A stretch of DNA of 64,000 nucleotides from Lamprocystis purpurea DSM 4197 (lineage in GTDB: Bacteria; Pseudomonadota; Gammaproteobacteria; Chromatiales; Chromatiaceae), in the NCBI RefSeq assembly GCF_000379525.1, contig NZ_KB902507.1:1-64000 (forward strand). The letters run 5' to 3'. How positions within the stretch are numbered: the stretch's first letter is position 1; the number at the start of each line of letters is the position of its first letter. The translations under genes were made by a program, and so were the position numbers. A model generated the notes under the pieces. The model was not told where the DNA came from, did no database searches, and worked only from the letters and a program-made list of their open reading frames with translations. Positions 6,537 to 20,697 of this stretch are shown piece by piece.

Positions 6537-7742
6537 TCAGGCGAGCCGCCGTTCGTGCAAGACGTCATCCCCCGGGATGCGTTCCGGCTGGACCGGCTGG
6601 ACCGTCCCCCAGCGCTTGCAGCTCGGGCACTGCCAGTGCACGGCACGCGCCGCGAAACCGCAATGGTCGCATTGATACGCGGGTTGGCGTGCGAGCAAAT
6701 AGCGGACCACTTCATGGACCACATGCGCGCGATGACCAGACCCGGCCCGCGCGGCCGTGGCCTGCTGCGATTGTAGTTGCAGCAAGCGCTCCAGGGCGGC
6801 CAGATCCACATGACCGGCAAGATAGTCGGTGAGCGCGGCCAGCGCGGCCTCGGGGCCGCGCGCGCGCTCCAGCGCATCGCTCAAGGCCAACAACACCGGC
6901 GGCGAGGGGTGGCGTGATACCAGCGATTCGAGCACGTCGATCAGATCGCCGCGCCCCAAGTCTTCCAGCGCCTGTATCAGCCCCGGCAGGACTTCCGGCA
7001 GATAGCGCGCACCCTGATCCGCAACCCGCAGGAACAGCGCCAAGGCCGCCTCCTGATCCTGTTGCGCGAGCGCCATCTCTCCCGCGATGAGCGTGGCACG
7101 CACGCACAAGGGGTCGGCGTCCTGCGCCCGGTCCAAATGATGTCTGACGGCCGCGGGCTCGGCGCGGCGACGCGCCTCCTCCGCCAGTTCGCAGTGATAC
7201 TGGGCGATCTCGAGGTTCATCGGGTGTTCGCTGAACGGTTTGAGCCGTTCCGCGATCTCCAGACAACGCGACCAGTCGCGCTCTTGCTGATAGATGTCGA
7301 GCAGCCCGCGCAGCGCGCGCTCGCGCTGCAAGCCGATCTCGGCCAACTCCTCGAACAGAATCTCCGCCCGATCGAGCAATCCGGCACGCATGTAGTCCTG
7401 TCCCAACTCGAACAGGGCGTACCCGCGCTGCTCGGCGCTCAGGGTGTTGCGGGCAACGAGGTTCTGATGGATGCGGATGGCCCGGTCGGCCTCACCCCGG
7501 CGCCGGTACAGGCTCCCCAACGCCAGATGGGTCTCCACCGTCTCGCCATCGACCTCCGAGATCTCCAGGAACACATCGATCGCCTTATCCGGTTGTTCGT
7601 CCAACAGAAAGTTGAGTCCGCGCAAGAACGCCGGATGGGCACCAGGAGGCGCAACCGGACCCTTGCGTCCGGCGTCCCGCCGACCGATCCACCACCCGGA
7701 GGCCGCGGCCACCGGAAGCAACAAAAACAGCAGTTCGATCAC
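6537..7742 (-). CDS. lapB: lipopolysaccharide assembly protein B (TPR, rubredoxin-like metal site)
   Basis: LapB (YciM) is an inner-membrane-anchored TPR protein that links LPS synthesis to FtsH-dependent LpxC turnover. The 401 residues compare with 389 in E. coli. The N-terminal anchor starts with [18 protein letters not shown], followed by [18 protein letters not shown] and consecutive TPR units. The C-terminus holds a rubredoxin-like knuckle, CDHCGF ... CPSCKRW. The GTG at 7742 is chosen because the family begins exactly at this hydrophobic segment. The usual partner lapA is not upstream; the 278 bases up to the divergent dehydrogenase contain no credible LapA-like gene. With hldE and galU nearby, the left part of the window is rich in envelope-sugar functions. 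Confidence 0.92.
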
Positions 7743-8020
7743 GGACGCGCGCCCCCGGCCGCCACGCGACGGTCGTCTCCCGGCCCGGCAGGGCGCGCGG
7801 GGGCTATAGCGGCAACGAAAAGAGGTGTAAGGTTCACCCCGCCATAATACAGGCATCCCCGCGCGGTCGCATGGGTGGGGATCTGCCGCTGCGCCCCGAT
7901 TGTCTGCCGATCGAGGGGACTGGCTCCTGCGGCGGCGTGCAGCGGCCGGGGCATCGGCGGTGACGGCCCGCGGTTCAGCAGCAGTCTCCCCCACCCCATC
8001 AGCATGAGGAAATGAACCCT

Positions 8021-8734
8021 ATGTCAAAATTCACGGATCAAGTTGTCATCGTCACCGGTGCCGCCGGGAACATGGGGCGGGCCGTGGCCTGGGCGTTCGC
8101 CGGCCAAGGTGCCCGCATCGCCCTGGTGGACCGGGACGCGCAGGCACTGGAGCAGATCCGCGCGGCACTGCCCGCGGGCACGGTGGCCATCGGGATCACC
8201 ACCGACCTCATGAACCCGGAGTCGGTCGCCCGGATGAGTGCCGCCGTGATGGAGCAGTTCGGGCGGGTGGATGTCCTGGCCAATCTCGCCGGCGGGTTCA
8301 CCATGGGCCCGCCCATCCACGAGACCGCCGACCACGACTGGACCTTCATGCTGGATCTCAATGCCCGCACCGTCTTCAACTGTTGCCGGGCGGTGGTGCC
8401 GCTGCTGCTGGCCGGCGGGGGCGGGCACATCGTCAACGTCGCGGCCCGCGCGGCGACCCGCGGCATCGGCCGCATGGGACCCTATTGCGCATCCAAAGCG
8501 GCCGTCATCACCCTGACCGAGAGTCTGGCGGATGAGCTCAAAGATCAGGGGATCACCGTCAACTGCATCCTTCCCGGCACGGTCGACACCCCCCAGAACC
8601 GCGCGGCCATGCCCGATCAGGACCATGACCGCTGGGTATCGCTCGCGGCACTAGCCGACGTGATCCTGTTTCTCGCCTCGGACGCGGCACGCGCCGTCAC
8701 CGGCGCCGCCGTGCCGGTCTACGGACGCAGTTGA
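8021..8734 (+). CDS. short-chain dehydrogenase/reductase family protein with altered catalytic Ser
   Basis: A 237-residue Rossmann-fold SDR. TGAAGNMG at 12-19 binds NAD(P), D37 at the end of beta-2 favours NAD, NLAGG is at 88-92, the structural N114 is present and Y155-x3-K159 is intact. The residue 13 before the Tyr, normally the catalytic Ser, is Ala (A142, in VNVAARAATRG). GAGGA at 8006-8010 sits 10 bases before ATG 8021 and only one base before the alternative ATG 8012, so 8021 is preferred. It is divergent from lapB and is followed closely by a small secreted protein gene. The substrate is unknown; with Ala at this position it could be slow, use another Ser, or bind without catalysis. 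Confidence 0.85.
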   Translation: MSKFTDQVVIVTGAAGNMGRAVAWAFAGQGARIALVDRDAQALEQIRAALPAGTVAIGITTDLMNPESVARMSAAVMEQFGRVDVLANLAGGFTMGPPIHETADHDWTFMLDLNARTVFNCCRAVVPLLLAGGGGHIVNVAARAATRGIGRMGPYCASKAAVITLTESLADELKDQGITVNCILPGTVDTPQNRAAMPDQDHDRWVSLAALADVILFLASDAARAVTGAAVPVYGRS

Positions 8735-8742
8735 GCAGCCGC

Positions 8743-9180
8743 ATGCCATTCGTCACCGCCGAGCGCGGGCTGCGCGCGCCCGCAACCCGTCTGATCCCGC
8801 TCCTGCCCTGGCTGGTCGCGGTCGCCGTTGCGGCGCCGCCCGACCTGACCCCGGAAACCCGTCAAGCCCTGGTGACCGCGGTCGAGGCTGCCGCGGCACT
8901 CGACTTCTACAACGCCCGCTGCCGCAGCGACGGCTCCGGGCGGCACAGTAACAACCTCAACAAACAACTGGCCAGCAAGCTCCACGTCACCATCATGGGC
9001 GTCCAGGACGACCTGTTTCCGGAGCGCAGCTTCCGCGCCGTCCAACGGCGCCTGCAAGACCAGTTCACCGAGGATTTACGCCAAGCCGGCGGCTGCCAGG
9101 GCGCCAAGGACGCCGGGGTCCCGGAGCAACTCAACGACCGCTATCGCGGCAGCATAGCGGCCATTGAGGCGCTGCCTTAG
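8743..9180 (+). CDS. small exported protein of unknown function
   Basis: A 145-residue protein with a likely N-terminal signal (RLIPLLPWLVAVAVAAPPD), predicted to be cut near residue 30 and released to the periplasm. The mature part is helical and polar, with two Cys in CRSDGSG and GGCQGAK that could form a disulfide. I do not recognise the family. It may instead start at TTG 8731, overlapping the dehydrogenase stop (TTGA), which suggests translational coupling. The stop codon lies at the boundary of the palindromic element at 9176-9297, so the natural C-terminus may have been altered by that insertion. Confidence 0.55.
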   Translation: MPFVTAERGLRAPATRLIPLLPWLVAVAVAAPPDLTPETRQALVTAVEAAAALDFYNARCRSDGSGRHSNNLNKQLASKLHVTIMGVQDDLFPERSFRAVQRRLQDQFTEDLRQAGGCQGAKDAGVPEQLNDRYRGSIAAIEALP

Positions 9181-9297
9181 GCAATTTCCGGGAAAAAGTG
9201 TACAAACCTGTAGGGGCGACTTCAGTCGCCCCTAAAACCCCTACGGAATCCTGCAGGCATGCGCAGTCGGGAGGTTTGTTCCCGGAAATCGCCTTAG
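9176..9297. repeat. MITE-like element with long terminal inverted repeats, family E
   Basis: The left end CTTAGGCAATTTCCGGGAA and right end TTCCCGGAAATCGCCTTAG are inverted copies, and CAAACCT/AGGTTTG extends the symmetry inward. The centre carries the family E hairpin TAGGGGCGACTTCAGTCGCCCCTA. It separates the secreted-protein gene from the restriction-modification island. Confidence 0.7.
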
Positions 9298-9328
9298 ACC
9301 GACAACAGAGCAACCCCTACTCTTAAGG

Positions 9329-10477
9329 ATGCAACCAGAAACCGTCCAATCGCCTGAAGTCACGCTTGCGCAACTCGAGTCCCATCTCTGGGGCGCCGCC
9401 AACATCCTGCGCGGCAGCCCGGTCGATCGCACCGACTGGAACGAGTATCTGATCAAGACCTTTGCCGACGCCACCAAAAAGAAAGCCGGCGAGTTCTACA
9501 CCCCGCGCAGCGTCGTGCGGCTGATGATCGAGATCCTCGACCCCCAGGAGGGCGAGACAATCTATGACCCCGCCTGCGGCACCGGCGGGATGCTGCTGGC
9601 CGCCGTCGAACATGTCCGCGCCCAGGGCGGCGACCCGCGGACCTTCTTCGGTAAGCTCTACGGTCAGGAAAAAAACCTCACCACCTCGGCCGTGGCCCGC
9701 ATGAACCTGCTGCTGCACGGCCTGGAGGACTTCCAGATCGAACGGGGCGACACCCTGCGCAACCCGGTGTTCACCGACCCCAGTACCGGCGGGCTCGCCA
9801 CCTTCGATATCGTGCTCGCCAATCCGCCCTTTTCGCTCGAAAAATGGGGCCGTGAGGTCTGGGAGAATGACCCCTGGGGACGCGCCTTTGCCGGCGTGCC
9901 CACCGACAGTTCGGGCGACTTCGCCTGGGTTCAGCACATGGTCAAGTCGATGGCCGCCCCGCACGGCAGTATGGCCGTGGTGCTGCCCCAGGGGGCGCTG
10001 TTCCGCGGCGGCATTGAGGGCAAGATCCGCCAACACCTGCTGCAACAGGACTTGGTCGAGGCGGTGATTGGCCTCGCGCCGAACCTGTTCTACGGAACTG
10101 GCCTTGCCGCCTGCATCCTGGTGCTGCGGCGGCAAAAGCCCCCCGAGAGCGCCAGCCGGGTGCTCATCGTCGATGCCTCCACCCTGTTTCGCAAGGACCG
10201 CGCGCAGAATCATCTGGAGCCGGCGCACGCCGACCGCATCCTGGGCTGGTACCAGACCTTCGAGGATATGGAAGATTACGTCCGCGTGGTCGGGCTCGAC
10301 GCAATCGAGCAGGAAGGCTGGACGCTCAACATCTCGCGCTATGTGCTGCCGCCGATCGGGCGTGACATCCCCCCGCTGGCGGAAGCCGTCGCGGATTTCA
10401 AGGCCGCGCTGGAGCGTTGCCGGGACGCGGAGGCGGCCTTGCGGCGGGAGATGACCGAGGGTGGTTGGCTGTTATGA
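9329..10477 (+). CDS. hsdM: type I restriction-modification DNA methyltransferase subunit, internally deleted N-terminus
   Basis: N6-adenine methyltransferase subunit of a type I system. The SAM motif DPACGTGG is at 80-87 and the catalytic NPPF at 165-168; FADATKKKAGEFYTPRS and LPQGALFRGG are typical HsdM sequences. At 382 residues it is about 110-150 shorter than usual. The N-terminal helical domain that contacts HsdS and DNA is cut out in frame: LWGAANILRG at 20-29 jumps almost directly to KTFADATKKKAGEF. The frame is otherwise open, so a protein could be made, but it probably cannot assemble normally. AAGGA abuts the ATG, a poor spacing. An ATGA overlap leads into the zinc-ribbon gene. Confidence 0.8.
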   Translation: MQPETVQSPEVTLAQLESHLWGAANILRGSPVDRTDWNEYLIKTFADATKKKAGEFYTPRSVVRLMIEILDPQEGETIYDPACGTGGMLLAAVEHVRAQGGDPRTFFGKLYGQEKNLTTSAVARMNLLLHGLEDFQIERGDTLRNPVFTDPSTGGLATFDIVLANPPFSLEKWGREVWENDPWGRAFAGVPTDSSGDFAWVQHMVKSMAAPHGSMAVVLPQGALFRGGIEGKIRQHLLQQDLVEAVIGLAPNLFYGTGLAACILVLRRQKPPESASRVLIVDASTLFRKDRAQNHLEPAHADRILGWYQTFEDMEDYVRVVGLDAIEQEGWTLNISRYVLPPIGRDIPPLAEAVADFKAALERCRDAEAALRREMTEGGWLL

Positions 10478-10686
10478 CCTATAGAAAATACCGCTGCCCG
10501 GCATGTCGACAGACGACTGGCGTTGCTATCCTATACGGACTGCCAAGCCACGAAGCATTCGAAGCGGCCAATCGCGAGGAAATCGCTTTAGGTGGTTGTT
10601 GTATCGATTTGGACGGACCAGAGCGTCAATGCAACCGTTGCGGTCATCAGTGGCGCATTAAACGTAGGGATGTCCCAATTGAATAG
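10474..10686 (+). CDS. small zinc-ribbon protein of unknown function
   Basis: Seventy residues with CPAC near the N-terminus and CNRCGHQW near the C-terminus, a two-knuckle zinc ribbon. ATG 10474 overlaps the hsdM stop as ATGA, so it is translationally coupled to hsdM, and its end overlaps the start of the second hsdM remnant. Base composition is lower in GC than the neighbours, consistent with an acquired cassette. No function can be assigned; a small nucleic-acid-binding accessory of the restriction system is one possibility. Confidence 0.6.
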   Translation: MTYRKYRCPACRQTTGVAILYGLPSHEAFEAANREEIALGGCCIDLDGPERQCNRCGHQWRIKRRDVPIE

Positions 10687-11263
10687 CCCCATGAGCCTCC
10701 AGCAACTCGAATCCTATCTGTGGGGCGCCGCCACCATCCTACGCGGGCTCATTGATGCAGGCGACTACAAACAGTTCATCTTCCCGCTGGTCTTCTACAA
10801 GCGCCTGTCGGATGTCTGGGACGAGGACTATGCACAGGCACTGACCAGCTATGCCGACGACGCGCAACTCGCCCGCGCCGAGGCCGATGAGCGTTTCAGG
10901 GTCCCCGCGGGCGCCCACTGGAACCAAGTACGCACCGTCGCCAAGGACGTTGGCAAGGACATCCTGAAGAGTTTGGACCCGCGGACCGGACGCTGTGCCA
11001 TCCTCTTTCCGCACGGTGTCCTGTTTCGCAAGGGAGAGGGCGAGATGCGACGTAAGCTGATCGAGGCCAACTTGGTCGACTGCGTGCTGGGACTCGGCCC
11101 CAACCCGGAGACGGCCCAGCGTCTGGATCTGGTCTTCGGCGGCACCTCCCGGTTCTGGCTCACCCGCGAGGCGCCGTATCGCGCGGCTTTGCAGGGAGCA
11201 GCGCCGCGCGAACCTACCGACACGGCAGACGCTCGCATCGTGCTGACTTGCGGGCTTTCGTAG
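10670..11263 (+). pseudogene. hsdM: second hsdM remnant lacking the methyltransferase core
   Basis: The first 85 or so residues are a good HsdM N-terminal domain (LESYLWGAATILRG, FPLVFYKRLSDVWDEDY). After AKDVGKDILKSLDP the sequence jumps to GRCAILFPHGVLFRKGEGEM and VDCVLGLGPN, which belong far downstream in HsdM. The SAM-binding and NPPF motifs are gone, and the last 50 residues match nothing in HsdM. It keeps the part the first hsdM copy has lost. ATG 10670 or 10691 could start it. Not a functional methyltransferase. Confidence 0.8.
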
Positions 11264-11271
11264 AATTCCCA

Positions 11272-11364
11272 AACACTCAGAGCCAAACCCCCACAAGCGC
11301 TTGTGGGGATACCTCTCGCCTTGTTGAAAGGCATTCCAGCCGTCGGCGAGAAACCCGTCCGGGC
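11272..11364 (+). pseudogene. fragment related to the 3' part of the AlbA_2-type pseudogene
   Basis: One frame reads LVGIPLALLKGIPAVGEKP, which aligns with LVGIPDALWERIQAAGQKP encoded near 13128-13185, and the DNA around CACAAGCGCTTGTGGGGAT is clearly similar. This is a duplicated scrap of the same gene type, cut on the right by the MITE insertion at 11374. Confidence 0.5.
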
Positions 11365-11373
11365 GTCCCGGCC

Positions 11374-11579
11374 CAGCAGTTCCAAATTTGGGTGGCCGCC
11401 GCCAACAGCGTGCCGGCCGCGAGGCTGATGGTGGATGCGCTGCGCTTATCCACCCTACAAAACCGGATCCGCTGTAGGGTGGATAAGGCGCGCCGCTCGG
11501 TGTCAGAGGCCCAGCACGACGGTCGCGCGCGCCGCATCCACCAGGGATCGCGCGATGCCACCCAAATTTGGAATTGCTG
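11374..11579 (+). mobile_element. 206-bp MITE, family D copy 1, with 9-bp target duplication
   Basis: Terminal inverted repeats CAGCAGTTCCAAATTTGGG (left) and the complement of CAGCAATTCCAAATTTGGG (right) bound exactly 206 bp. GTCCCGGCC occurs directly on both sides (11365-11373 and 11580-11588), a 9-bp target-site duplication. No coding capacity; the inside holds a further palindrome, TTATCCACCCTAC / GTAGGGTGGATAA. A second full copy is at 20984-21189 and a truncated one at 61855-62007. Confidence 0.92.
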
Positions 11580-13713: not shown

Positions 13714-14989
13714 ATGACCTTCAATGAATCCAACACCATCGAAGCCTACCTGTGCGATCTGCTCGCCCGGCCGATGGCGCGGAACGCGGTTCGGGATGCG
13801 GCGGGGGGCTATGGTGTTGGGCTGGGCGCGCCTTATCCGCCGGGGCGGGACGCCCCGGCTCCTTTGGGGTGGCAACCGGTCGCTGCCGCTGACCTGCAAC
13901 GCCAGCCGCAGGAGGTCTTTGTCGAGTCTCAGGTCCGTGCGGCGCTGATCCGGCTCAATCCCGAGATCGCCGCGCGGCCGGAACGCGCCGATGAGGTGCT
14001 CTACAAGCTGCGCGCTATCGTGCTCTCTGTGCGCAGCGATGGGCTGATCAAGTGCAATGAGGAGTTCACCGCCTGGCTGCGCGGTGAGCGCTCGATGCCG
14101 TTCGGGCCGAATAATGAACATGTCACGGTGCGCCTGATCGACTTCAAGGACCTGGAGAACAATCAATACGTCGTCACTACGCAATACGGCTTTCGCGCCG
14201 GCCCGGCCGAGCGCCGCGCGGATGCCATGCTGCTGGTCAATGGCTTTCCGCTGATCCTGATCGAGACCAAGACCCCGGTGCGGCCGGCGGTGAGTTGGGT
14301 CGACGCCGCGCTTCAGATCCATGACGACTATGAAAAATACGTCCCTGAACTCTTTGTCTGCAACGTATTCAGCGTAGCGACCGACGGCAAGGAGCTACGC
14401 TTTGGTGCCATCCACCTGCCGATCGACCTTTGGGGACCCTGGCGGATGGACGAGGACGCGGTGCCCACGGGTCTACGAATCGCTCAAGCCGTCCACCGGT
14501 CAGGGGGCACTGCTCTGGCATGTACTGGGTGAGAAAACCATCGCGCTGATCCATGCGCATGTCCGCGTCGGGACCATCCACGACGATCTCGATGATCTGG
14601 TGTTCGACGCCGATGTGATCGAAGCGATCCTGGACCCCGCCGGCCAGCAGCAGAAGGCCAAGGAGATCGCGATCAAGGTCGCCGCGCGGCTGCGCCGCCA
14701 TCTTGGCAACCCGCGTTTCAAGCGGCTGTCCGAGCGGCTGGAACAGCTCAAGGCGCGCCACGAGGCCGGTCAGTTGCACAGCATCGCGTTCCTCAAGGAG
14801 TTGCTGGATCTGGCCCGCGACCTGGTTGCCGCGGAGCAGGAGACTCCGCCCGCCGAGGATGAGGACCGCGGCCGGGCCGCGCTCACCGCGCTGTTCCAGG
14901 AGGTACGCAATCCCGCAACCCCGGTCGTTGTCGAGCGCGTGGTCGAGGACATCGACCAGATCGTGCGCATCGTGCGCTTACCCTACTAA
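13714..14989 (+). pseudogene. hsdR: hsdR remnant: nuclease domain joined to C-terminal tail, motor lost
   Basis: ATG 13714 starts an HsdR N-terminus with a PD-(D/E)xK-type core (RRADAMLLVNGFPLILIETKTP region, D and ExK present). Near 14440-14520 the frame changes, and the continuation to 14989 (TIALIHAHVRVG, DDLDDLVFDADVIEAIL, VVVERVVEDIDQIVRIVR) is the HsdR C-terminal helical region. Both RecA-like translocase domains are missing, so restriction is not possible. With the hsdM and hsdS remnants this completes a decayed type I locus. Confidence 0.8.
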
Positions 14990-17134: not shown

Positions 17135-19612
17135 TCACGCGCAGCTTGCCCGACGGATGACCGGCGACCCCTCGGCCTCGCGCGCGGCCATGCGCAACAG
17201 GTTCGCCGCCACCGCCGCCTCGGCGGGGCGGGCGAACAAATAGCCCTGGCCCAGATCGCAATCCAACCCACGCAGAATCGCCAACTGATCCGCGGTCTCG
17301 ACCCCCTCGGCGATGACCCGCAGGTGCAGGGCATGGGCCAGGGTGATCATCGCGGTCACCAGTGTGCGATCCCCATCCACCGTGCACAACCGGGCGACGA
17401 AGCTGCGGTCGATCTTGATGCAGTCCACGGACAATTGTTGCAGGTAGCCCAGGGAGGAGTAACCGGTACCGAAGTCATCAATGTGGATGGCCAGTCCCAG
17501 TGCACGCAGGGCCTGAAGCCGGCCGGTGTCGTGCAGGGTCTGTTCCATCAGCACCGACTCGGTGATCTCGAGATGGATGTCCGCCGCCGATAACCCATGC
17601 TCCGCCAGCAGAGTACTGACCGTCTGCGCCAGCGATTCCCGCTGAAGCTGACCACCGGAGACATTGACCGAGACCGGAACCGTCGCCAGCCCGGCCAGGC
17701 GCCAGGCGGCGATTTGACGACAGACCTCCGCCAGCACCCAGCGCCCGATCTCGCGGATCAACCCGGTCTCCTCCGCCACCGGGATGAATTGCCCGGGCGG
17801 GACCCAGCCCAAGACCTCGTTGTGCCAACGCAGCAGCGCCTCGAAACCGGCCAGGCACCCGTGTTCGAGGCGGACGATGGGCTGATAGTGCAGGGTGAGT
17901 TCACCGCGGCCCAGCGCCAGGCGCAACTGACTCTCCATCTGCAGGCGGGCGGCGACCCGATGGTCCAGCTCGGCGGAGAAGAAATGCAGGGTGTTGCGAC
18001 CCATGGCCTTGGCCCCGTACATGGCGAGATCCGCGCAGCGAATCAGCCCATCGGCGTCGGCGGCGTCACGCGGATAGAGGGTGATGCCGATGCTCGCGGT
18101 GACGATGTACTGGGCGCCGCCCAGGTCGCTGGGCTGCACGACCGCGTCCAGAATGGACTGCGCCAAATCCGCGGCTTGATCGGGACTGCTCAGCCGGTCG
18201 GCGACGATCAGAAATTCATCGCCGCCGAAGCGGCTGAGGTGGACCCTCGACGCGGGGGGCGCCGACACGCCCTCCAGGCGCCGTGCCAGGCCCCGCAACA
18301 GTTCATCGCCCTGGGCATGACCAAGTGCATCATTGATTTGCTTGAAATTATCCAGATCAAGGAACAATACCGCCAGGTACCCGTCAGCACCCGCGGCCGC
18401 CGCGACACAGGCGCTGAGCAGTTCCCGGATCAGGCGGCGATTGGGCAGGCCGGTGAGCGGATCGTGGAAGGCGAGCAACTCGATCTGCTCCCGACGATCC
18501 GCCAGGTCTTCGCCCATGACCCGCACCGCCGCCGCCAGGGCGCCGATCTCGTCGGCCGAATGAATAGGAATCGGTGTACGCAGTTCGCCCGCGCCGATGC
18601 GGCCCGCCGCGTCGCGCAGGACGGCCAAGGGGCGCAACACCAGACGCCGCAGCCAGGCGATCAGGGCCGTCGTCAGCAGCAGGACGGCAAACCCCGTCAT
18701 GATCAGTGTTGTCAGCCCCAGGCGGCGCAGCGGTGTCGCCAGGCTGTGCTCCGGCAGGGCGGCCAGGGCGAGGATGCCGGGTTCGATGAAGCGAACCCTG
18801 ACCAGCCAGGGGCTCGCATCCCAGGTCCTGATCCCAGCGGCCCGCGACCCGCTCCGATCGGAGTGCGCGGACACCGGGTCAGGATGCAGCAGTGCCGACG
18901 GCAATCGCCGGCCGGTCCAGACGCCGCTGGAGTCGAACAGGACCTCGCCGGCGGGGAACGCCAGGATCAGGCGGCCGGACGCGGCAATGGGGAGCGCGCG
19001 CAGCCGCTCAAGAATTGGGTCCAATGAGACCCGCAGCACCAGATAGCCGCGGGTACGCAGGGTGTCGTCCGCCCGCGTCAGGTAGTGATCGGCCAACGCG
19101 ATACGGCGGTAGACCTGCAGTGCACCGCCACCTTCCGGATCCTGGCTCAGCCTCACGCTGACCGGATCAGGGGCCGTCTGGACCGACGCAAACCCCGGCT
19201 CAGCGCCGCCCGCCGACACCTGAGCGGGCCGATCGCTCGCCGCCACCCGGATATCCATGGTCCCGTCCGGACGCAGTAAACGAATCTCCTGATACTCCGG
19301 ATAAGCGTCACGGTACTGATAGAACAGCTTGAGCAGCGGGGCTTGCAACAACTCGGTCCGCTCCTGATCATCCGCGGCGCGAACATACCGCTCCACCGGA
19401 CCGGCGGCGGCGAACAGTGCGCTGTTGGCCTGTGCCGCATCCACGAGGCCGCGCAGACCTTGGGCCGTCGCGTCCAGGGCCGTATCCAGGGACTGGACCG
19501 CCGCGTCTTCCAGGTCCTGACGCAGTGCGTCGTAGGACACCCAGCCCAGCGCCAGCACCGGCCCCGCCACCAGGGGAACCAGCACCAGGGCGAGTTTGAG
19601 TTGGAGGCGCAC
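17135..19612 (-). CDS. membrane sensor with HAMP, GGDEF and EAL domains (MbaA-like)
   Basis: Predicted cyclic-di-GMP enzyme of 825 residues. TM1 is near the start (LKLALVLVPLVAGPVLALGW), a periplasmic sensor covers about 30-290, TM2 follows (LTTLIMTGFAVLLLTTALIAW), then HAMP, GGDEF and EAL. The diguanylate cyclase motif GGDEF is intact at 463-467 (RFGGDEF). The EAL domain keeps FEALLRW (EAL 591-593), LEITESVL, IDDFGTGYSS and CIKIDRSF, so phosphodiesterase activity is plausible. GTG 19612 is five bases past the stop of the upstream polyamine-binding gene, so the two form an operon. That pairing is the Vibrio NspS-MbaA arrangement, where the binding protein signals to the periplasmic domain. 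Confidence 0.85.
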   Translation of the reverse strand: MRLQLKLALVLVPLVAGPVLALGWVSYDALRQDLEDAAVQSLDTALDATAQGLRGLVDAAQANSALFAAAGPVERYVRAADDQERTELLQAPLLKLFYQYRDAYPEYQEIRLLRPDGTMDIRVAASDRPAQVSAGGAEPGFASVQTAPDPVSVRLSQDPEGGGALQVYRRIALADHYLTRADDTLRTRGYLVLRVSLDPILERLRALPIAASGRLILAFPAGEVLFDSSGVWTGRRLPSALLHPDPVSAHSDRSGSRAAGIRTWDASPWLVRVRFIEPGILALAALPEHSLATPLRRLGLTTLIMTGFAVLLLTTALIAWLRRLVLRPLAVLRDAAGRIGAGELRTPIPIHSADEIGALAAAVRVMGEDLADRREQIELLAFHDPLTGLPNRRLIRELLSACVAAAAGADGYLAVLFLDLDNFKQINDALGHAQGDELLRGLARRLEGVSAPPASRVHLSRFGGDEFLIVADRLSSPDQAADLAQSILDAVVQPSDLGGAQYIVTASIGITLYPRDAADADGLIRCADLAMYGAKAMGRNTLHFFSAELDHRVAARLQMESQLRLALGRGELTLHYQPIVRLEHGCLAGFEALLRWHNEVLGWVPPGQFIPVAEETGLIREIGRWVLAEVCRQIAAWRLAGLATVPVSVNVSGGQLQRESLAQTVSTLLAEHGLSAADIHLEITESVLMEQTLHDTGRLQALRALGLAIHIDDFGTGYSSLGYLQQLSVDCIKIDRSFVARLCTVDGDRTLVTAMITLAHALHLRVIAEGVETADQLAILRGLDCDLGQGYLFARPAEAAVAANLLRMAAREAEGSPVIRRASCA

Positions 19613-19617
19613 CGCCC

Positions 19618-20697
19618 TCAGTCCCCATGCACCAGGGCGGCATAGGCCCGCATCCGTGCGCTGACGGCCGGTGCCGGCAGCCGGGCATAGAACTCGCAAC
19701 GCGCGAACGTGGCAGGGTCCGGATAAACCAGCGGGTCCTGGAGGAAAGTCGCCGGCAGCAGGCGCTCGGCGGCCAGGTTGGGGGTGGCATAGTTCAGGTC
19801 GCGGGCGTTGCGGGCCGCGATCTCAGGGCGATTGAGAAAGTCGAGAAAGGCTGCCGCCAGCGCTGGTTGAGCGCTCCGGGCGGCCACCGTCAGGAAGTCC
19901 AGCCACAGGGCGCCACCCTCGCGCGGGACCACATAGGCGACCTGATCGTTACGATCGATCAGGGCGGCGGCATCGCCGTTGAAGGAAACGGCGGCGGCGA
20001 CCTGCCCGGTCAACAGCTCGGAGCGGGCATCCAGGGCCAGGGCGCCGTAGCGGAACACCGCGGGTCGCTGCGCCTTCAGCAGGTCAGCCGCGGCCTGGAT
20101 CTGGGCGGTGTTACTGGTGTTCATCGAGAACCCCAGTGCTTTGAGGGCGACCGCGAACAGGTCGAAGTGATCGGCGATCATCAAGATACGCCCGCGCAAC
20201 GCCGGGGCGGGATTCAGCAGGTCGAGCCAGGAGTCCAGCTCGCGGCCTACCAGATCGCGTCGATAGACGATTCCCATGGTCCCCCACAGGTAGGGGAGCC
20301 CATAGTCACGGCTGCCGGGATAGGCCGCATCCCAGCGCGGGTCGATGTGGCGCCGATGGGGGATCGCGGTTGGGTCCAGCGGTTCGAGCCAACCGTGTTT
20401 GCGATAAACCTCCAGGGCATTGCTGTCAACCAGCAGGACGTCGAAGCCCGCCCCGTCCGTCGCGCTCAGCACCTGGTCGCGCGCATCATCGGTTTCAAAA
20501 TAGACCTGACGGACCCGGGCACCGGACGCGGCCTCGAACGCCGCGATCACGGCCGGCGCAAGATAGTCGGGCCAATTGAAAACGACCAATTCCGGACGCG
20601 CGACAGCACCCTGCGCTGCGGCGACCGACGGTCCCGTTGTTGCCGGACCGGCGCACAGCACCAACAAGACGAGCAAAGACAGGGCGGACCGTCGCAT
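19618..20697 (-). CDS. periplasmic polyamine-binding protein (PotD/PotF/NspS-like)
   Basis: A 359-residue extracellular solute-binding protein with a signal peptide (SALSLLVLLVLCAGPATTG). VVFNWPDYLAPAVIAAFE is the classic start of the spermidine/putrescine-binding family, followed by FDVLLVDSN, YGLPYLWGTMGIVYRRD and AVSFNGDAAALI. The C-terminus DLNYATPNLAAERLLP is also typical. No PotABC permease genes are nearby; the only partner is the GGDEF/EAL gene five bases downstream. It is therefore more likely a sensor subunit, like NspS, than a transport component; this is inference. ATG 20697 starts directly at the signal peptide. Confidence 0.85.
   Translation of the reverse strand: MRRSALSLLVLLVLCAGPATTGPSVAAAQGAVARPELVVFNWPDYLAPAVIAAFEAASGARVRQVYFETDDARDQVLSATDGAGFDVLLVDSNALEVYRKHGWLEPLDPTAIPHRRHIDPRWDAAYPGSRDYGLPYLWGTMGIVYRRDLVGRELDSWLDLLNPAPALRGRILMIADHFDLFAVALKALGFSMNTSNTAQIQAAADLLKAQRPAVFRYGALALDARSELLTGQVAAAVSFNGDAAALIDRNDQVAYVVPREGGALWLDFLTVAARSAQPALAAAFLDFLNRPEIAARNARDLNYATPNLAAERLLPATFLQDPLVYPDPATFARCEFYARLPAPAVSARMRAYAALVHGD

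What the first reader, a model, noticed from the sequence alone, without database searches (positions are those of the whole stretch)
17135..20697. NspS/MbaA-like polyamine-sensing cyclic-di-GMP module
A PotD/PotF-family binding protein without any PotABC genes is followed five bases later by a two-TM GGDEF-EAL protein with intact motifs. In Vibrio cholerae the same pair senses norspermidine and spermidine to control biofilm. Here both GGDEF and EAL keep their signatures, whereas MbaA works mainly as a phosphodiesterase. This would extend the module to a probable purple sulfur bacterium.
Basis: partly seen in the sequence, partly recalled or inferred. Interest (0 to 1): 0.6.

Follow-up and report, generated by a model that had tools for sequence, protein, structure and literature searches.

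The report
Polyamine-type sensor pair controlling cyclic-di-GMP
A purple sulfur bacterium carries a two-gene sensor, most likely for polyamines, in which a periplasmic binding protein reports to a membrane enzyme that can make and break a biofilm messenger; the same sensing half is also found attached to kinases in related bacteria.

Summary
A PotD/PotF-fold binding protein (19618-20697, minus strand) ends five bases before a GTG-started two-span receptor (17135-19612): dCache-HAMP-GGDEF-EAL with intact motifs. The genome has a separate PotFGHI-type importer with its own binding protein, so this one is probably a signalling protein. Its pocket keeps the aromatic and acidic residues of polyamine binders; its 30 best structural matches are spermidine/putrescine-binding proteins, many of them variants of PotF. 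The NspS/MbaA analogy is sound, with two corrections: published MbaA is bifunctional, and the window family's sensor domain matches the MbaA examples I could fetch only weakly. Beyond the finding: 76 of 80 named relatives have the receptor next door, 54 with GGDEF-EAL, 18 with histidine kinases, 2 with GGDEF only, 2 cut or broken. On quick trees the output changed at least twice while binding protein and sensor domain stayed together. Some Marinobacter and Halomonas loci have two or three binding-protein genes before one receptor. The window pair is a new member of a known kind; its wider family holds variants not listed in the papers searched. Ligand and enzyme direction are untested.

The parts
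19618..20697 (-). Periplasmic polyamine-type solute-binding protein (NspS-like), 359 aa with an N-terminal export signal (by eye)
   Evidence: ORF and translation; SBP_bac_8 108.7 bits; PotD model 142 bits, under its cut-off 582; model pLDDT 92.7, best structural matches PotD/PotF/SpuD/SpuE/VcPotD1
19613..19617 (-). Five-base gap between the two genes; the GTG start follows directly, translational coupling likely (inference)
   Evidence: sequence
17135..19612 (-). Membrane receptor, 825 aa: TM1 - dCache - TM2 - HAMP - GGDEF - EAL (MbaA-like)
18722..19534 (-). Periplasmic sensor domain (residues 27-297), double Cache fold
   Evidence: model of residues 1-370, pLDDT 90.5; dCache chains at Z 19.1 over 231 residues, rmsd 2.8-3.1; dCache_1 at or over the Pfam cut-off in six of 18 kinase-type relatives, not in the window itself
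18503..18655 (-). HAMP linker (residues 320-370)
   Evidence: Pfam HAMP 51 bits
17993..18472 (-). GGDEF diguanylate cyclase domain (residues 381-540), GGDEF motif at 18212-18226, no RxxD inhibition site seen
   Evidence: Pfam 135 bits; residues listed
17225..17929 (-). EAL phosphodiesterase domain (residues 562-796), catalytic residues complete
   Evidence: Pfam 246 bits; residues listed

Best explanation
A periplasmic amine-sensing module. The exported binding protein closes around a polyamine (putrescine or spermidine are the likeliest; inferred from the pocket and the genome's content). Free or loaded, or both, it docks on the dCache domain of the receptor encoded next to it (inferred from gene order and its conservation). 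The dCache domain shifts TM2 and HAMP, which moves the balance between the GGDEF cyclase and the EAL phosphodiesterase, so that outside polyamine sets the c-di-GMP level and with it attachment or motility. It senses only; uptake is left to the separate PotFGHI-type importer. Shown here: the two genes, their domains, intact active-site motifs, pocket residues, predicted folds, a separate importer, conserved pairing, exchangeable output. Not shown: the ligand, the docking, which way c-di-GMP moves, the behaviour controlled.
For: Conserved pairing: 23 of 31 family genomes examined; in a class-wide sample all 8 of 369 genomes with a profile score of 412 bits or more, the window's own included, have the sensor domain next to it, and 0 of 22 examined loci at 273 bits or less show it within the roughly 1.5 kb held. 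Pocket (56 GGDEF-EAL and 21 kinase-type pairs): W42 77 of 77, D267 77 of 77, W265 56 of 56 and 18 of 21, D242 54 of 56 and 18 of 21, acid at 179 in 55 of 56 and 14 of 21. Of eight V. cholerae NspS contact positions given in PMC9993111, six are identical (W42, D71, D91, D242, W265, D267) and two are L for F and F for Y; this mapping rests on residue spacing and the S. meliloti sequence. Structure: ranks 1-30 of the fold search are PotD/PotF/SpuD/SpuE-type chains. Probably not a transport component: a PotFGHI-type operon with its own binding protein lies on another contig. Hallmark: R73 in 72 of 77 paired proteins and in S. meliloti and Shinella NspS, in 0 of 31 unpaired relatives.
Against: No binding or enzyme data. 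Position 71, equated with an NspS contact, is acidic in only 41 of 56 GGDEF-EAL and 17 of 21 kinase-type relatives; position 91 is D in 18 of 56, N in 28, S in 10. One of seven further paired proteins (L161) has G at 265. W42, D267 and mostly W265 and D242 are also found in unpaired relatives of unknown ligand (29, 30, 25 and 21 of 31), so they do not prove a polyamine. Nearby binding-protein and kinase genes need not work together: PMC11113362 (abstract) saw no interaction in the neighbour pairs it tested. The module is dispensable: one same-genus genome shows only a remnant and one has no match. It is uncommon: 8 of 369 in the class sample. Authentic V. cholerae NspS could not be fetched. 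SBP/sensor distances correlate (r 0.918) hardly better than SBP/output distances (0.906), so that statistic does not single out a physical contact.
Confidence: 0.66

Rival explanations
1. Same machine, other ligand: the binding protein senses another cationic or amino compound (GABA, 5-aminovalerate, an opine-like or arginine-derived amine) and not a polyamine.
For: Core pocket columns are shared by most unpaired relatives of unknown ligand. Position 91 varies among D, N and S. Three kinase-type relatives have lost W265 and the acids at 176/179 (L057, L140, L144), and the receptor-side tandem copies in two Marinobacter loci have lost D242, so ligands do seem to drift in this family. PMC11113362 (abstract) reports GABA and 5-aminovalerate for binding proteins encoded near kinases.
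Against: The window protein keeps the acidic and aromatic positions. In the fold search the polyamine group runs from 3.9e-30 to 1.9e-21; YdcS follows at 9.2e-20, a clostridial ABC protein at 3.1e-17 and opine binders from 7.6e-16, so the ordering favours polyamines without a sharp break.
Confidence: 0.2
2. The dCache domain of the receptor binds the small molecule directly, and the binding protein is only an accessory or a competitor.
For: dCache domains commonly bind amino acids and amines directly (PMC10104139, passages); the model's nearest structures include such domains. The strand at 163-173, which could line a pocket, is moderately conserved.
Against: In 73 aligned sensor domains the best conserved periplasmic parts are the helices 71-103 and the strands 107-113, 118-124 and 186-196; residues 125-157 are among the least conserved, together with the proximal half. 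0 of 73 carry an R-x-W-[YF] pattern within residues 100-200 (the pattern for amino-acid sensors is partly recalled). The binding-protein gene is kept next door through kinase and GGDEF-EAL versions alike.
Confidence: 0.12
3. The binding protein is an extra ligand-delivery subunit for the PotFGHI-type importer, and the receptor next to it is an unrelated c-di-GMP enzyme.
For: It is a PotD/PotF relative, and importers can accept more than one binding protein (general knowledge).
Against: The importer has its own PotF-like protein at 443 bits. The pairing with the receptor recurs in 76 of 80 named loci. R73 is absent from 31 of 31 unpaired relatives, R146 from 25 of 31, against 72 and 77 of 77 paired ones.
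Confidence: 0.05

Closest known systems
NspS-MbaA of Vibrio cholerae (PMC8079147, PMC8967002: passages read)
   Same: PotD-type binding protein encoded just upstream of a two-span HAMP-GGDEF-EAL receptor; six of eight listed NspS contact positions identical; both cytoplasmic domains plausibly active.
   Different: GGDEF/EAL here, SGDEF/EVL there; five-base gap here, a 16 bp overlap there (PMC9993111 section 17); the genome lacks nspC over cut-off and has speE. V. cholerae sequences were not in hand, so no identity is given.
NspS-MbaA of Sinorhizobium meliloti (PMC9993111 abstract and section 17; sequence L074, strain Ak57)
   Same: Same gene order; binding proteins 35% identical; shares L40, R73, W122, Y145, R146, L167, Q210, A298, T305 with the window family against four unpaired PotD/PotF-like proteins.
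   Different: Receptors 27% identical overall. W103, fixed in 77 of 77 family members, is I in S. meliloti as in the unpaired set. The home-made sensor-domain profile does not find the S. meliloti or Shinella receptor at 1e-4; profile comparison gives 97% with spans and HAMP, 63% for the periplasmic part with the first span.
PotD/PotF importer binding proteins (1pot, 1a99, 3ttm, 7xjm)
   Same: Fold (TM 0.70-0.83 on the query over ranks 1-30) and core pocket.
   Different: Not encoded with permease or ATPase genes; PotD and PotF models far below cut-off (142 of 582, 107 of 636). In the five PDB alignments printed, read by eye, positions 73 and 146 are M and N instead of R and R.
Binding-protein-activated kinases such as LuxP-LuxQ, TorT-TorS, BctC-BctE (recalled; BctC-BctE seen in passages of PMC9602780)
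   Same: A loaded periplasmic protein docks on the sensor domain of a transmembrane receptor; the kinase-type relatives found here are built the same way.
   Different: Those binding proteins belong to other families (recalled); the window receptor is a c-di-GMP enzyme, not a kinase.

Membership tests
NspS-MbaA c-di-GMP module | PotD/PotF-family binding protein encoded directly upstream of the receptor | tested here: met
   Five-base gap, same strand; pairing kept in relatives
NspS-MbaA c-di-GMP module | Two-span receptor with periplasmic domain, HAMP, GGDEF, EAL | tested here: met
   Pfam, model, alignment with S. meliloti MbaA
NspS-MbaA c-di-GMP module | NspS ligand-contact positions (eight listed in PMC9993111) | tested here: met
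   Six identical, two conservative by spacing and via S. meliloti NspS; V. cholerae NspS itself not aligned
NspS-MbaA c-di-GMP module | Binding protein works in signalling, not transport | tested here: inconclusive
   Genome content only: separate PotFGHI-type operon with its own SBP and R73/R146; no functional test
NspS-MbaA c-di-GMP module | Sensor domain homologous to that of MbaA | tested here: inconclusive
   97.4% with spans and HAMP, 63.1% without second span and HAMP; no hit of the family profile in L074, L075
NspS-MbaA c-di-GMP module | Polyamine binding and polyamine-dependent c-di-GMP change | not testable with these tools
   Needs protein and cells
PotD/PotF importer binding protein | Score over the NCBIfam PotD or PotF cut-off | tested here: not met
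   142 of 582 and 107.4 of 636 bits; the genome's own PotF-like protein also stays below (443 of 636), so this alone is weak
PotD/PotF importer binding protein | Encoded with permease and ATPase genes | tested here: not met
   Neighbours are yajC-secD-secF, CoA-binding protein, hydrolase
dCache_1 sensor domain | Pfam score of at least 45 bits | tested here: not met
   Window 18.8 bits; six of 18 kinase-type relatives reach it: L119 46.2, L127 45, L130 65.1, L151 48, L145 50.4, L148 48.7
dCache_1 sensor domain | Double-Cache fold | tested here: met
   Model pLDDT 90.5; Z 15-19 to the dCache structures among the 50 entries shown

The most novel reading that the evidence does not exclude
The window pair is one branch of a large, so far unnamed family of amine sensors in which a fixed front half (PotD-type binding protein plus a partner dCache domain) is plugged into different signalling outputs: GGDEF-EAL, GGDEF alone, or histidine kinases with or without receiver, Hpt or GGDEF, with HisKA_2 and PAS versions too. 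Some members place two or three binding proteins with differing pockets before one receptor, so one receptor could weigh several amines. NspS-MbaA would then be a distant or convergent cousin rather than the whole story.
Probability: 0.5. Interest if true: 0.65.

Novelty: new member of a known kind. Interest (0 to 1): 0.45.

Why it matters
Polyamine-to-c-di-GMP signalling by a binding protein has been worked out in V. cholerae and begun in S. meliloti. Here is a divergent branch, found mostly in sulfur and marine gammaproteobacteria in the set seen, with canonical GGDEF and EAL motifs. If the front half really is interchangeable, it gives a natural set of matched receptors (cyclase/phosphodiesterase, cyclase only, kinase) for asking how one docking event drives different outputs, and a candidate residue signature (R73, less strictly R146) for telling sensing from transporting PotD-like proteins, which automatic annotation tends to name ABC transporter parts (as in L074).

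Tried and rejected
S. meliloti, Shinella and V. campbellii served instead.

Co-divergence as proof of contact: SBP-sensor r 0.918, SBP-output 0.906, partial 0.51 against 0.39 (54 pairs). Too close to claim anything.

LuxQ-type sensors do not appear among the 50 entries shown in the structural second look; no conclusion drawn.

PotABC using this protein: thought unlikely, see rivals. Norspermidine as self-made signal: thought unlikely for this genome, nspC only 26.5 bits of 409.

The automatic motif column sometimes picked up the G-D-x-L-L motif instead of GGDEF; one search corrected this (L101 and L131 have intact GGDEF).

Trees are 'quick' ones without bootstrap; S. meliloti/Shinella NspS sit on a branch of 2.09 and their place inside the family is not trusted. 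The hallmark columns were picked after the fact against four unpaired proteins, three of which are also in the 31. Y145, A298 and T305 separate poorly there (16, 11 and 13 of 31 have the paired-type residue).

Rows dropped before counts: L074/L075 from the pocket counts; L103 (truncated SBP), L126, L153, L110 from some alignments or trees. L086, L097, L134, L143 have no receptor in the stretch held; the first three end at contig ends, L143 is a lone SBP gene. In one search, 75 of 194 genomes matched, and neighbours were examined for 31 (window plus 30 fetched); of the eight without a pair, one is a broken gene, one a fragment, one a remnant, five are unpaired within what was held. In one search, 60 of 369 matched and 30 loci were examined; one unpaired protein there (L167) lies beside a response regulator and a kinase without the sensor domain.
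Full report
WHAT IS THERE. Two minus-strand genes stand alone between the plus-strand yajC-secD-secF cluster and a plus-strand CoA-binding protein gene. The first encodes a 359-residue binding protein with an export signal by eye (19618-20697). Five bases after its stop (GGGCG) a GTG opens an 825-residue receptor (17135-19612). Pfam sees SBP_bac_8 in the first, HAMP, GGDEF and EAL in the second, and only a sub-threshold dCache_1 in the receptor's N-terminal part. GGDEF is intact, no RxxD feedback site is seen, and the EAL residues used for metal and substrate are present.

THE RECEPTOR'S SENSOR IS A DOUBLE CACHE DOMAIN. AlphaFold on residues 1-370 with 73 aligned rows gave pLDDT 90.5. Foldseek and the second look place it with dCache domains of kinases, chemoreceptors and GGDEF proteins (Z 19.1 over 231 residues for the best crystal structures). 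Six of 18 kinase-type relatives reach the Pfam dCache_1 cut-off. Across the 73 rows the best conserved periplasmic parts are helices 71-103 and strands 107-113, 118-124 and 186-196; residues 125-157, where part of a small-molecule pocket would be expected, are weakly conserved, as is the proximal half, while strand 163-173 is intermediate. That would suit a surface that receives a protein; this last step is inference.

THE BINDING PROTEIN IS A POLYAMINE-TYPE ONE. The model (pLDDT 92.7) has as its first 30 structural matches PotD, PotF and its variants, SpuD, SpuE, VcPotD1, a Listeria spermidine/putrescine protein and TpPotD; YdcS follows at 9.2e-20 and opine binders from 7.6e-16. W42, D242, W265 and D267 are nearly fixed in the paired proteins. 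Eight NspS contact positions are listed in PMC9993111 (section 17); six are identical here, and F131 and Y233 become L and F. The spacing W+29 and W+49 for the two extra acids matches. Against a simple reading: positions 71 and 91 vary among relatives, one further paired protein lacks W265, and the same core pocket also occurs in unpaired proteins.

IT IS PROBABLY NOT THE IMPORTER'S PROTEIN. The genome (6.9 Mb, 211 contigs, completeness given as 100%) has one ATPase over the PotA subfamily cut-off among 64 matches. Beside it on contig C199 lie PotH-, PotI- and PotF-type genes; these score far better with PotF/G/H/I models than with PotA/B/C/D ones but below the strict cut-offs (PotF 443 of 636, PotG 476 of 613, PotH 414 of 489, PotI 383 of 476). 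Spermidine synthase is present (268.9 bits, cut-off 249.55), nspC is not (26.5 of 409). The cell can therefore make spermidine but probably not norspermidine by the carboxynorspermidine route.

THE PAIR IS AN OLD PARTNERSHIP. In the window's family, 75 of 194 genomes have a match at 1e-20. Thirty were fetched at greater length; with the window that makes 31 examined, of which 23 have the binding protein followed by the same sensor domain: 16 lead into GGDEF-EAL, six into kinases, and one receptor (L062) is broken; in L063 the binding protein itself has a stop inside. In the window's genus the pair is intact in six of eight genomes; G168 keeps only residues 13-70 of the binding protein between yajC and a truncated CoA-binding gene, which looks like one deletion at the same site; G079 has no match. 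The yajC site itself is shared only with G156 and G168 among the 11 loci compared. In a class-wide sample there is a clear gap in score: eight of 369 genomes at 412 bits or more, all with the sensor domain next door, and 22 examined loci at 273 bits or less, none with it in the flank held.

NAMED RELATIVES AND OUTPUT SWAPPING. One scan of named genomes confirmed 289 loci and kept the best 80: Chromatiaceae, Marinobacter, Halomonas, Granulosicoccus, Sedimenticola, Desulfuromonas, Desulfobulbaceae, Magnetococcales, SAR324 and others. Of these 80, 76 have the sensor domain downstream: 54 continue into GGDEF-EAL (home-made profiles and motifs), 18 into histidine kinases (each confirmed with Pfam), two into GGDEF only (L101, L131), two are cut or broken. 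Kinase types carry HisKA-HATPase with none, one or two receivers, and Hpt, PAS, GGDEF or HisKA_2 in different members. On the binding-protein tree and on the sensor-domain tree the kinase label needs seven changes, at least two forced by well-supported branches; the case of L104 (GGDEF-EAL) beside L106 and L118 (kinases) is starred in both (quick trees). So the output was exchanged more than once while the front half stayed together.

A CANDIDATE SIGNATURE FOR SENSING RATHER THAN TRANSPORT. Comparing 77 paired proteins with four unpaired PotD/PotF-like ones (one of them the genome's own PotF-type), R73 (72 of 77), Y145 (74), R146 (77), Q210 (72) and others differ, and S. meliloti and Shinella NspS carry the paired-type residue at R73, Y145, R146, Q210, A298 and T305; W103, fixed in the family, they do not share. 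In 31 unpaired relatives R73 occurs 0 times, W122 once, R146 and Q210 six times each, but Y145 16, A298 11 and T305 13 times, so only the first are discriminating. R73 holds in 56 of 56 GGDEF-EAL but 16 of 21 kinase-type pairs. R73 and R146 lie outside the pocket list, so they may mark the docking face (inference). This is the best evidence here that the window protein and NspS belong together, and it partly offsets the weak sensor-domain match.

SEVERAL BINDING PROTEINS, ONE RECEPTOR. L087 and L095 (Marinobacter) have two, L088 and L092 (Halomonas) three NspS-like genes in a row before one receptor; L086 has two, the second cut by the contig end. Copies are 65-76% identical within a locus. 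The copy beside the receptor in L087 and L095 has lost D242 (Y and G), perhaps also the cut copy in L086; the Halomonas copies keep it. One receptor may thus read several ligands (inference). I met no such array in the NspS-MbaA texts read here.

HOW IT PROBABLY WORKS. By analogy with V. cholerae, where norspermidine favours synthesis and spermidine breakdown by a bifunctional MbaA working with NspS (PMC8079147, PMC8967002; passages), the binding protein should tilt the receptor between GGDEF and EAL activity. Direction cannot be told from sequence. Of 57 GGDEF-EAL receptors (S. meliloti included), 51 have GGDEF, three GGDEL, two GGDQL, one SGDEF; the GGDEL and GGDQL ones are all Chromatiaceae (Thiohalocapsa, Halochromatium, Lamprobacter), where the phosphodiesterase may dominate (inference).

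WHAT IS KNOWN AND WHAT IS NOT. PMC9993111 (section 17) reports the pair in 222 of 16,076 complete proteobacterial genomes with S. meliloti queries; that section names Vibrio, Pseudomonas, Sinorhizobium/Ensifer, Shewanella, Marinomonas, Shinella and several others, not Chromatiaceae, Marinobacter or Halomonas (its figures are not held). Paper searches listed no title or abstract on a PotD-type protein feeding a dCache kinase, and none on this module in purple sulfur bacteria. They cover open-licence papers only, and most hits were judged from listings. Other papers: PMC5646818, PMC9602780, PMC10104139, PMC8846402 (passages), PMC11113362 (abstract). A caution from the last: neighbouring binding-protein and kinase genes in P. 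aeruginosa showed no interaction in its tests.

VERDICT. The window holds a genuine, probably active sensing pair that works like NspS-MbaA. Membership by the binding protein and by architecture is good; by the sensor domain it is unresolved. For the window alone this is a new member of a known kind. The wider family, with kinases and multiple binding proteins, is the more interesting result.

Noticed in passing
L057, L058, L059, L060, L061, L063 and L106, L111, L118, L119, L124, L127, L130, L133, L135-L137, L140, L144, L145, L147, L148, L151, L155: Same binding protein and dCache domain joined to histidine kinases (some with receiver, Hpt, PAS or GGDEF) instead of GGDEF-EAL.
   Followed up: yes
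L087, L095 (two genes), L088, L092 (three genes), L086 (two, contig end): Tandem NspS-like genes before one receptor; the receptor-side copy in L087 and L095 lost pocket residue D242.
   Followed up: partly
L073:6500-8290 (G168, same genus): Apparent same-site deletion: remnant of the binding-protein gene (residues 13-70) and a truncated CoA-binding gene between yajC and the hydrolase; receptor gone.
   Followed up: yes
L057, L140, L144 (Imhoffiella, Thiorhodococcus type): Kinase-GGDEF subgroup whose binding protein has M for W265 and no acids at 176/179: probably a different ligand.
   Followed up: partly
L101:7099-8787 and L131:7075-8808: Receptors that end after an intact GGDEF domain without EAL; the L131 binding protein has T in place of W265.
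   Followed up: partly
L104, about 7018-11560: A second GGDEF-EAL receptor with a weak sensor-domain match follows the first: one binding protein, possibly two receptors.
   Followed up: no
L187:4001-6337 (Vibrio campbellii NZ_CP050465.1): MbaA-like SGDEF/EVL receptor with no binding-protein gene beside it and no close NspS-like protein in the 2.06 Mb record (best 26.9 bits).
   Followed up: partly
L126: Record titled Klebsiella pneumoniae MAG carries a typical pair of this marine/sulfur gammaproteobacterial kind; probably a misnamed bin.
   Followed up: no
window 13714-14989: Type I restriction HsdR N-terminal fragment followed by an overlapping out-of-frame ORF: looks like a broken hsdR.
   Followed up: no
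L143:5914-6999: NspS-like gene in a Magnetococcales bin without any receptor gene next to it.
   Followed up: no
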